A DNA stretch of 59,524 nucleotides, from positions 1 through 59,524 of the forward strand of contig CATKZK010000006.1 in the NCBI GenBank assembly GCA_949841325.1, given 5' to 3'. Origin of the DNA: an uncultured Bacilli bacterium (GTDB lineage: Bacteria; Bacillota_I; Bacilli_A; RF39; UBA660). This document shows positions 20,193-53,784 of this stretch, one piece after another. The first letter of the stretch is position 1. The number at the start of each line of letters is the position of its first letter. The position numbers were made by a program, and so were the translations under genes. The notes beneath the pieces are model-generated. The model did no database searches. It was not told the DNA's origin and worked only from the letters and a program-made list of their open reading frames with translations.

Positions 20193-20329
20193 TTGTCAAA
20201 AAAATGTTATTATGTTATGATGAATTTGTCTAGGAAACTTAGACAAAAAAAGGGAATACTTAATTGAACGGAATTGAGTACATACCTTTTATGCGTGTGC
20301 ACTTATTAAGTTAAGTGCTCTTTTCTTAT
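20193..20329 (+). ncRNA. Candidate antitoxin RNA convergent to the small hydrophobic peptide gene
   Basis: TTGTCA 20193-20198, 17 nt, TATGAT 20216-20221; 8-bp 5' hairpin TTTGTCTA/TAGACAAA; terminator GCACTTA-N6-TAAGTGC + TCTTTTCTT ending about 20329. Confidence 0.65.
20299..20318. terminator. Central shared hairpin between the two convergent transcripts
   Basis: GCACTTA-TTAAGT-TAAGTGC; T-rich 3' flank on the + strand, weaker on the - strand. Confidence 0.7.
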
Positions 20330-20418
20330 ATAAATCTTTTTATTAAAGTAAACATCAGAATGATTAATAAGAAGATAATGAGAAGTAAGGAAAGAATTAA
20401 AAAATCTTTCTTATACAT
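20326..20418 (-). CDS. 30-aa hydrophobic peptide, candidate type I toxin
   Basis: Translated by hand: MYKKDFLILSLLLIIFLLIILMFTLIKRFI; strong SD GGAGGAG 7 nt upstream of ATG; not in ORF track because of length. Confidence 0.7.
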   Translation of the reverse strand: MYKKDFLILSLLLIIFLLIILMFTLIKRFI

Positions 20419-20425
20419 CGGATCT

Positions 20426-20500
20426 CCTCCTTTCGGAGGTAAGTACTCAGGAATTAAGTTTCCCTAGAAATATCATAACATAATTCACCGAATAAGTGAA
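20426..20500 (-). promoter_or_regulatory. Promoter and structured 5' leader of the 30-aa peptide gene
   Basis: -35 TTCACT (20495-20500), 17-nt spacer, -10 TATGAT (20472-20477); SD-masking hairpin CCTCC-GAAA-GGAGG (20426-20439). Confidence 0.65.
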
Positions 20501-20533: not shown

Positions 20534-21167
20534 ATGAATGAAAAAGTAATAGAAAAAATTAAGCAAAATAATCGAAAATATGAGATGAATGATGGCAATG
20601 GTTTCGTTCAGTCTGATAAGAATTACAATTTTGTTATCTGCACCGCATGCTGTTAAAAAGGTTAGAAATGAAGTAACGAAGGGTGAAGATAGATTGACTG
20701 GTGGTATTGTCGAATACTTGTGTGAGGTCTTCCAAGTATTTGGTATTGTGAGAACAGGAAACTTAAGAGATGACCCCAGTTATTATAATGGTTCGGACTA
20801 TAAAGAGGCTATACTTGAGGTAATTAAAGAATACGGAATTGTCTATTTATTTGATATTCATGGCTGTACAAATGACCATGGTTTTGATATAGGGATTGGA
20901 ACATTTTATGGGAAGAATATTTCCCATGAGATCAAAGAAGTAGAGCATATAAAAAACGTGCTTTCAAAGGATTTTTTAGTATAAGTAGACAAAACATTTA
21001 TTGCACCACCAAATACCGTTTCACATTTTATTCATGATATTTCAGGAATTAAGTGTTTACAGTTTGAATTAAGCCAAAAAGTGAGAACAGATGATCATTA
21101 TCTTCATCATTTTATAGAAAATTTCGGAAAAATAATAAACGATATAGAAATATCTATGATAAAATAA
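20534..21167 (+). pseudogene. N-formylglutamate amidohydrolase-like remnant
   Basis: SAPHAVKKVRN.VTKGEDRLTGGIVEYLC...GNLRDDPSYY...DIHGC..DHGFDIGIGT; N-terminal frameshift near 20635 and in-frame TAA at 20982. Confidence 0.6.
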
Positions 21168-52923: not shown

Positions 52924-53445
52924 ATGAAACATACATTAGATTTTGATACAATAGCTGAAGAGTTTTTATCTAATCGTAATTTTCAAAGAATTAGTCGTGA
53001 AAGTCACCATGGAATTACGAGGATGGAGCATTCAATGCGTGTAGCAAAATATGTTTATAAAATCAGTAAGAAATTAAAGTTAGATTATAAATCAGCAACA
53101 AGAGCCGCTATTGCTCATGATTTTTTCTCAGTAGAAGAGTTTGGAAAATGTAGGGGACTTATTCAGGGAGTTGTTCATCCAGATATTGCCCTTTCTAATG
53201 CAATGGGGGAATTTTCTTTAAATAAAGTAGAACAAAATGCCATTGCATCTCATATGTTTCCCCTTAATATGACTTTACCAAAGTCAAAAGAAGCTTGGGT
53301 ACTTACAGCTGTTGATAAAGTTGTTGCCATTTATGAGTATTTTAGCTATAAATTTAGTTATACTAAAGTGACATCAAAGGTTAGTAATGCGTTTTCCTTT
53401 ATGGGGATTCTTTGTTTTAATATATTAACAATGGGACATAAATAA
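52924..53445 (+). CDS. HD-domain phosphohydrolase
   Basis: GITRMEHSMRVAKYVYKISKKLKLDYKSATRAAIAHDFF. Confidence 0.78.
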   Translation: MKHTLDFDTIAEEFLSNRNFQRISRESHHGITRMEHSMRVAKYVYKISKKLKLDYKSATRAAIAHDFFSVEEFGKCRGLIQGVVHPDIALSNAMGEFSLNKVEQNAIASHMFPLNMTLPKSKEAWVLTAVDKVVAIYEYFSYKFSYTKVTSKVSNAFSFMGILCFNILTMGHK

Positions 53446-53494: not shown

Positions 53495-53597
53495 GTTGTC
53501 CTCGTAGCTCAGTAGGATAGAGTAATCGCCTCCTAAGAGTTTCTTTAGGTTAGGATTATGGAGGAAAGAAACTCTTATAAAATAAGGGAAGGACAAC
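53495..53597 (+). other. Degenerate tRNA-Arg(CCT)-like element with inserted hairpin
   Basis: GTCCTCGTAGCTCAGTAGGATAGAGTAATCGCCTCCTAAG matches a tRNA-Arg 5' half; then 13-bp stem TAAGAGTTTCTTT/AAAGAAACTCTTA; outer GTTGTCCT/AGGACAAC pairing. Confidence 0.6.
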
Positions 53598-53663
53598 AAT
53601 TTAAAGTTAGAAATAGTCGCAAAAATGTCGCGAATTTCTGTCCCTGTCTTTAAAAAAAACAAA

Positions 53664-53701
53664 TTGATTTTAAAAAAGTGGAATACAATTTTTAAAATCA
53701 A
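53664..53701. repeat. 13-bp perfect inverted repeat just upstream of tRNA-Arg
   Basis: TTGATTTTAAAAA...TTTTTAAAATCAA. Confidence 0.8.
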
Positions 53702-53707
53702 AAAAAT

Positions 53708-53784
53708 GTTCCCGTAGCATAACAGGAAAATGCAGTCGCCTCCTAAGCGACCGAGTGGGTGTTCGAGTCACCTCGGGAACACCA
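53708..53784 (+). tRNA. tRNA-Arg(CCT)
   Basis: GTTCCCG/CGGGAAC acceptor, anticodon CCT in GTCGC-CTCCTAA-GCGAC, encoded CCA. Confidence 0.88.

What the first reader, a model, noticed from the sequence alone, without database searches (positions are those of the whole stretch)
20193..20500. Candidate new type I toxin-antitoxin cassette: 30-aa hydrophobic peptide with convergent RNA (absent from ORF track)
Seen directly: a minus-strand ORF at 20326-20418 (MYKKDFLILSLLLIIFLLIILMFTLIKRFI) with a strong SD, its own promoter (TTCACT-17-TATGAT), and a convergent + strand promoter (TTGTCA-17-TATGAT). Both transcripts head into one central hairpin (20299-20318). Established knowledge: convergent RNAs over a shared bidirectional terminator encoding a small membrane peptide is the par/Fst type I TA layout. 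Inference: the peptide has no Fst-like Pro or charged tail, so this may be a distinct family sharing the layout.
Basis: partly seen in the sequence, partly recalled or inferred. Interest (0 to 1): 0.88.

Follow-up and report, generated by a model that had tools for sequence, protein, structure and literature searches.

The report
New toxin–antitoxin RNA family, gut Bacilli
A 30-residue membrane peptide gene facing a small antisense RNA belongs to a previously unnamed, many-copy family of probable toxin–antitoxin modules in uncultured gut bacteria; many copies look switched on by DNA damage, and about a third sit right behind tRNA genes, some of them visibly at the end of tiny mobile elements.

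Summary
The 30-aa hydrophobic ORF (20326-20418, minus) and the convergent plus-strand promoter are real and conserved. The central hairpin (20299-20318) terminates only the plus-strand RNA. The toxin-strand terminator lies further on (about 20246-20280), so the RNAs overlap by about 80 nt.

The cassette belongs to a multicopy family: 7 DNA-level copies in its own genome, 25 of 60 related genomes hit, essentially restricted to one family of uncultured gut Bacilli. At least five peptide families share one antisense-RNA chassis. The peptide is under purifying selection. The antisense promoter, a 5' hairpin and two covarying stems are conserved. The toxin mRNA closes 5' to 3', and these arms co-vary between families.

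Best reading: a new family of type I toxin–antitoxin modules with 3'-overlapping RNAs (BsrG/SR4-like layout). It is not Fst: PXXXG motif and shared bidirectional terminator fail. Toxicity is untested.

Two further features: about 39% of toxin promoters carry a LexA-type box, usually next to the -10 (not the window copy). And 43 of 126 copies begin right behind a tRNA gene; where both ends are visible they are the tRNA-proximal end of 0.35-2.3 kb integrase-less insertions. The window copy lacks these flanks.

The parts
20326..20418 (-). toxin ORF, 30 aa, MYKKDFLILSLLLIIFLLIILMFTLIKRFI (family A)
   Evidence: in-frame substitution ratio 0.20 against 0.55 and 2.23 in the other frames
20426..20439 (-). 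SD-sequestering hairpin CCUCC-GAAA-GGAGG
   Evidence: sequence; equivalent SD hairpin seen across homologues
20437..20463 (-). 5' UTR arm that pairs with the mRNA 3' arm (long-distance closure)
20472..20500 (-). toxin promoter TTCACT-17-TATGAT, no LexA box in this copy
   Evidence: not sequence-conserved
20246..20288 (-). toxin mRNA 3' arm and intrinsic terminator (hairpin arms 20254-20264/20270-20280, then T7)
20299..20318 (+). central hairpin = terminator of the antisense RNA (U-run on + only)
   Evidence: helix 2 covaries
20193..20221 (+). antisense (antitoxin) promoter TTGTCA-17-TATGAT, extended -10
20223..20325 (+). antitoxin RNA (predicted, about 100 nt), covariance model hit 68.9 bits, E=1.2e-8 (the window sequence is one of the 31 used to build the model)
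20225..20247 (+). 5'-terminal hairpin of the antitoxin RNA (-9.5 kcal/mol)
20246..20466 (-). predicted toxin mRNA, about 220 nt, overlapping the antitoxin by about 80 nt
   Evidence: inferred ends
20534..21167 (+). broken ORFs directly after the cassette, in the orientation of cargo genes of sister elements; possibly a decayed cargo gene
   Evidence: no Pfam hit

Best explanation
This is a chromosomal type I toxin–antitoxin module. The minus-strand mRNA (about 220 nt) encodes a 30 aa single-span membrane peptide (23-31 aa in the family). It folds closed: its 5' arm pairs with its 3' arm, and its SD sits in a local hairpin. A convergent plus-strand RNA of about 100 nt, from a conserved promoter and starting with a 5' hairpin, is fully complementary to the last ~80 nt of the mRNA. 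It is expected to pair there, block or destabilise the mRNA (RNase III), and so keep the peptide off. The peptide, if made in excess, is expected to harm the membrane. Shown: ORF, promoter, hairpin and pairing conservation, family structure, distribution. Inferred: transcription, pairing in vivo, RNase III, toxicity.
For: The cassette is a multicopy family. Five peptide families share the same chassis. The peptide is under purifying selection. The antisense promoter is conserved with uninformative flanks, and is found 100-135 nt past the stop in 26 of 28 cassettes recovered by peptide alone (background 99th percentile 3.3). Antisense stems covary (cells with both sides changed 55 against 19.7 shuffled), with G-U outnumbering A-C, which points to the antisense strand as the folded one. 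The 5' hairpin is kept (35 of 39 against 9% of shuffles). The mRNA 5'-3' closure is own-family specific (means -31 to -36 kcal within own cassette against -8 to -26 across families). 22 of 106 antitoxin loci have lost an intact toxin by truncation, frameshift or start loss, as expected if the toxin is the dangerous part.
Against: No transcript or toxicity data. The loss asymmetry is suggestive only: toxin without antitoxin promoter 2 of 28 against antitoxin without toxin 22 of 106, Fisher p=0.16, and the two searches have different biases. Removing the 3' arm in silico does not free the SD, so the release step is unknown. The window's toxin promoter is a modest consensus match and is not conserved in sequence. 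No curated toxin family matches.
Confidence: 0.77

Rival explanations
1. A non-toxic small membrane protein (stress or transport regulator) whose expression is tuned by a cis-antisense RNA; regulation is type-I-like but the peptide is not a toxin.
For: Toxicity is untested; many small membrane peptides are not toxins; purifying selection on the peptide fits any useful peptide.
Against: Five different hydrophobic peptide families on one antisense chassis, repeated loss of the peptide while the antisense gene stays intact, tandem copies and variable position fit addiction modules better.
Confidence: 0.15
2. The inverted repeats and hairpins are primarily the ends of a miniature mobile element (MITE-like), and the ORF and RNA are incidental.
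For: Copies sit next to tRNA genes in a fixed orientation, vary in position between congeners, and are multicopy.
Against: Codon-level selection in one frame; promoter architecture and strand-specific G-U covariation; element ends lie outside the TA part.
Confidence: 0.04
3. A divergent member of the par/Fst superfamily.
For: Convergent RNAs, small membrane peptide, SD hairpin, a short direct repeat.
Against: No PXXXG, no Trp, no acidic tail, no Pfam Fst hit at E up to 10, no shared bidirectional terminator; Rfam no credible hit.
Confidence: 0.04

Closest known systems
bsrG/SR4 and txpA/RatA (Bacillus subtilis type I TA)
   Same: Convergent genes, RNAs overlapping at their 3' ends (about 120 nt in bsrG/SR4), small membrane toxin, SD in a hairpin; PMC4147584 states that the Gram-positive type I pairs known then overlap at 3' ends.
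   Different: Peptide 23-31 aa with no sequence relation; 5'-3' closing arms; no match in the phage records, plasmids or viral contigs searched; many copies and five toxin families per chassis; LexA boxes in many toxin promoters.
par/Fst (Enterococcus pAD1) and Fst/Ldr superfamily
   Same: Convergent promoters, about 220-230 nt toxin mRNA, SD-sequestering 5' stem (PMC7472228).
   Different: No shared bidirectional terminator, no PXXXG, Trp or charged acidic tail, antitoxin about 100 nt rather than ~40.
tisB/IstR-1, dinQ/agrB, symE/symR (E. coli SOS-controlled type I TA)
   Same: LexA box in the toxin promoter (many sister copies), small toxin, antisense RNA.
   Different: Gene layout, lineage, no sequence similarity; PMC6563280 names SOS-inducible type I systems from E. 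coli only. The window copy itself has no LexA box.
hok/sok and aapA1/IsoA1 mRNAs
   Same: mRNA 5' and 3' ends pair (for both from memory).
   Different: Antitoxin lies at the other end there (from memory); here removal of the 3' arm does not expose the SD in silico.
C. difficile CD2517.1/RCd8-type modules
   Same: Multicopy convergent type I modules with previously unannotated small toxins (PMC6563280).
   Different: Toxins 34-53 aa, CRISPR or prophage association; here tRNA-gene association.
tRNA-targeted genomic islands (Islander, PMC4383910) and integron gene cassettes
   Same: Insertion at tRNA 3' ends with a displaced end (sister copies); small units with zero or one cargo gene and a recurring end sequence.
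   Different: 0.35-2.3 kb, no integrase in the units examined, displaced end is a recurring motif rather than a copy of the target tRNA 3' half.

Membership tests
type I toxin-antitoxin system | small (<60 aa) hydrophobic membrane peptide under coding selection | tested here: met
type I toxin-antitoxin system | cis-encoded antisense RNA gene with its own promoter and terminator | tested here: met
   promoter and hairpin conservation, (prediction, no RNA data)
type I toxin-antitoxin system | peptide is toxic when expressed | not testable with these tools
   needs an expression experiment
type I toxin-antitoxin system | antisense RNA neutralises the toxin by pairing | not testable with these tools
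   about 80 nt perfect complementarity by sequence only
par/Fst | PXXXG motif, Trp and charged C-terminus | tested here: not met
   definition PMC7472228
par/Fst | shared bidirectional terminator | tested here: not met
   U-run on one strand only at 20299-20318; separate toxin terminator
par/Fst | convergent promoters | tested here: met
par/Fst | direct repeats DRa/DRb giving a second pairing region | tested here: inconclusive
   one 10-nt direct repeat GGAATTRAGT; stems are near-palindromic so trans pairing with the 5' UTR is possible
bsrG/SR4-like 3'-overlap layout | convergent RNAs overlapping at their 3' ends | tested here: met
   predicted overlap about 80 nt
bsrG/TxpA toxin families | sequence similarity of the toxin | tested here: not met
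   no credible hit in Pfam, NCBIfam or PHROGs
SOS-controlled type I TA (tisB-like) | LexA box in the toxin promoter | tested here: not met
   not in the window copy; present in 54 of 139 copies against 0.48 expected, mostly in a fixed register at the -10, matching the boxes upstream of lexA in the same lineage
tRNA-targeted mobile element | insertion directly behind a tRNA gene with a marked distal end | tested here: not met
   no tRNA, tRNA-3'-like end or native tRNA terminator near the window copy; met for 43 of 126 sister copies on the tRNA side and for about a dozen on both sides

The most novel reading that the evidence does not exclude
These type I TA modules are a recurrent part of a gene-cassette-like mobile system of uncultured gut Bacilli: tiny integrase-less units (TA module, zero or one cargo gene, and an end motif close to AGTTGTTGNACKTCYTYCYTTAGGGCACCA) insert exactly between a tRNA gene's CCA and its native terminator, at many different tRNA genes. 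The TA module, often with its toxin under LexA control, would keep the cassette in place. The window copy would be a decayed or relocated relative.
Probability: 0.5. Interest if true: 0.86.

Novelty: new variant of a known kind. Interest (0 to 1): 0.74.

Why it matters
It adds a chassis with at least five toxin families to the small set of known type I systems, in a lineage for which I found no characterised member, and gives covariance and peptide models to find more. It offers candidate LexA-controlled type I toxins outside the E. coli examples named in the reviews read here. If the tRNA-cassette reading is right, it exposes a gene-cassette system stabilised by RNA-regulated toxins.

Tried and rejected
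Rfam at gathering and relaxed thresholds: nothing credible. Pfam, NCBIfam, PHROGs, PADLOC: only chance hits, e.g. HokA E=0.33. Phage, plasmid and viral-contig searches: no match, so not obviously phage- or plasmid-borne. 3'-processing as an activating switch (hok-like): not supported in silico, SD stays paired after removing 48 nt. Antisense-model hits at 53197 and 53557 in the window: weak (E 0.38 and 0.99); the first lies in an ordinary ORF and the second just upstream of a tRNA-Arg, and neither is a cassette. The first 99% background for the promoter matrix was contaminated by cassettes and was redone. A first regex that classified tRNA adjacency gave zero adjacent genes and was dropped in favour of direct distance counts; a too-strict regex on the tRNA-Leu site was relaxed.

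Full report
What is in the sequence. The ORF at 20326-20418 (minus) encodes MYKKDFLILSLLLIIFLLIILMFTLIKRFI with an SD in a CCTCC-GAAA-GGAGG hairpin. The central hairpin is followed by a U-run only on the plus strand. The toxin strand runs on to a second hairpin and a T7 run at about 20246-20280. The predicted RNAs are therefore about 220 nt (minus) and about 100 nt (plus), overlapping by about 80 nt (ends inferred).

It is a family. A DNA search with the 338-bp cassette hits 25 of 60 genomes (the own one and relatives) and 7 places in the window's own genome of 1.34 Mb. Most well-resolved hits carry a related 23-30 aa peptide (consensus MxKKDFLIxSLIIIIFLLIxLLF) with an SD just upstream. The same chassis carries at least four further peptide families: B (MKTKTFIIKVLKLIAIILFLLIIMIVVIKK), C (MTKREFSQFIIILLLFLVVIILLLK), D (MRKQEKYLCTIIILLIIVILIILIKIVPTV) and E (MKKKDLLISFLILIIILLIVSLMILCIKK). 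By peptide model 14 of 296 genomes of the class match, all in the window's own family. By covariance model of the antisense RNA 23 match, 22 in that family and one elsewhere at a contig end, with at most 12 candidates per genome scored.

It is coding. In nearest-neighbour ORF pairs, single-difference codons are 271 synonymous to 178 non-synonymous in frame (ratio to expectation 0.20), against 0.55 and 2.23 in the other two frames.

The antisense gene is real by conservation. In 122 distinct sequences the promoter upstream of the searched pattern reads cTTGnnAAAA..TTTTATGtTATtATG with uninformative flanks. Cassettes recovered by peptide alone have this promoter 100-135 nt past the stop in 26 of 28 cases with enough flank. 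The RNA begins with a hairpin in 35 of 39 distinct forms (9% of shuffles), and its two other stems covary. G-U pairs on this strand outnumber the A-C mismatches that would be G-U on the other (49 to 18 and 21 to 10). In many copies a hairpin with a U-run overlaps the antisense -35, an apparent insulator (63% at or below -4 kcal against 9% shuffled), but not in the window copy.

The toxin mRNA. In 118 predicted mRNAs the first 14 nt pair with the 3' end with mean probability 0.82-0.90 per family. Own-arm duplexes average -31 to -36 kcal/mol, against -8 to -26 between different families. A and E, which are related, account for the strong cross-family values. The set was filtered for at least weak arm pairing, but that removed only a few cassettes. 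The SD is paired at about 0.8. Deleting the last 48 nt barely changes SD accessibility, so I do not claim a hok-like processing switch.

Loss pattern. Of 106 antitoxin loci with enough upstream DNA, 22 have no intact toxin, with frameshift, lost start or 5' truncation visible in many. Two of five antitoxin hits in the own genome look like this. From the toxin side 2 of 28 lack the promoter. The difference is not significant (p=0.16) and the searches differ in bias, so it is suggestive of toxicity only.

LexA. 54 of 139 toxin promoter regions contain RAAC-N4-GTTY (0.48 expected), mostly in a fixed place ending at the -10, e.g. AGAACAAACGTTTGATATAAT. LexA is present in all 19 genomes of the family that were scanned, and lexA itself carries AAACAAATGTTTG-type boxes upstream. 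One sister copy in the own genome has the box (G000:C24). The window copy does not.

tRNA association. 43 of 126 antitoxin promoters lie directly downstream of a tRNA gene, all in the same orientation, most 72-88 nt from the tRNA 3' end (random points 2.6%; p=7e-36, which ignores relatedness between loci). In the own genome (G000:C26) the order is tRNA-Leu CCA, spacer, antitoxin/toxin, a 210-aa ORF, an end motif TGTTGTTGTACGTCCTCCCTTAGGGCACCA, then a native-looking tRNA terminator 1107 nt from the CCA. At what looks like the same tRNA-Leu gene, G001 and G007 have the terminator right after the CCA, G006 has a cassette, and G004 and G005 have other sequence. The end motif occurs four times in the own genome, all on contigs with cassettes, and 0 times in the reversed-pattern control. 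Elements with both ends span about 0.35-2.3 kb. The eight or so inspected carry zero or one clear cargo gene (SDR, MazG/PRA-PH-like, DUF1653, a transposase-like ORF, unknowns) and no integrase. The window copy has no tRNA or end motif in the region checked, but is followed in the cargo orientation by broken ORFs (20534-21167). In four congeners the neighbouring ABC permease is followed by other genes.

Comparison. Fst fails on toxin signature and shared terminator. The layout is that of Gram-positive 3'-overlapping pairs such as bsrG/SR4. SOS-inducible type I systems named in the review read are from E. coli. No curated family or Rfam entry covers it. The literature library is open-access only, so a subscription paper could already describe it.

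Verdict. A real, conserved, new type I TA-like family; most likely toxin-antitoxin (0.77), toxicity unproven. The tRNA-cassette system is the most novel reading (0.5).

Noticed in passing
G000:C26 (L026, L268, L288); L112, L138, L120, L100, L109, L074, L058, L131: TA cassettes form the tRNA-proximal end of small integrase-less insertions behind tRNA genes, with a recurring end motif and, in some, a displaced native tRNA terminator.
   Followed up: partly
toxin promoters of L015, L031, L036, L044, L097 and others: LexA-type box RAAC-N4-GTTY in the toxin promoter spacer next to the -10, in about 39% of copies.
   Followed up: partly
L014, L039, L046, L071, L081, L116, L127: A second toxin promoter class with GTTCGMTTGTTT around the -35; regulator unknown.
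   Followed up: no
L003, L007, L020, L022 and many antitoxin promoters: A terminator-like hairpin with U-run embedded over the antisense -35, conserved and apparently covarying.
   Followed up: partly
L093, L117, L101, L057, L011, L020: Tandem arrays of 2-4 cassettes, sometimes of different toxin families.
   Followed up: no
L225 (G242:C32): One family-B cassette in a genome of another family, at a contig end; transfer or mis-binning.
   Followed up: partly
L034, L035, L226, L227, L021, L192, L224: Divergent peptide subgroups (MKKDFLILSLLSIIFMLFILLFQA, MKKDFLIFALIILIFLLILLQLVK and similar); the standard antisense promoter was not found in those tested (L021, L034, L035, L192, L224).
   Followed up: no
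window 20534-21167: Broken ORFs (frame changes and stops) after the cassette; looks like a pseudogene, no Pfam match.
   Followed up: partly
window 53498-53784: A tRNA-Arg(CCT) gene at 53708-53784 preceded by a tRNA 5'-half-like copy at about 53498-53540.
   Followed up: partly
G000:C3, C5, C25 (L242, L252, L246): Three Xer-like tyrosine recombinases of 293-297 aa in a 1.34 Mb genome; one might serve the cassettes.
   Followed up: no
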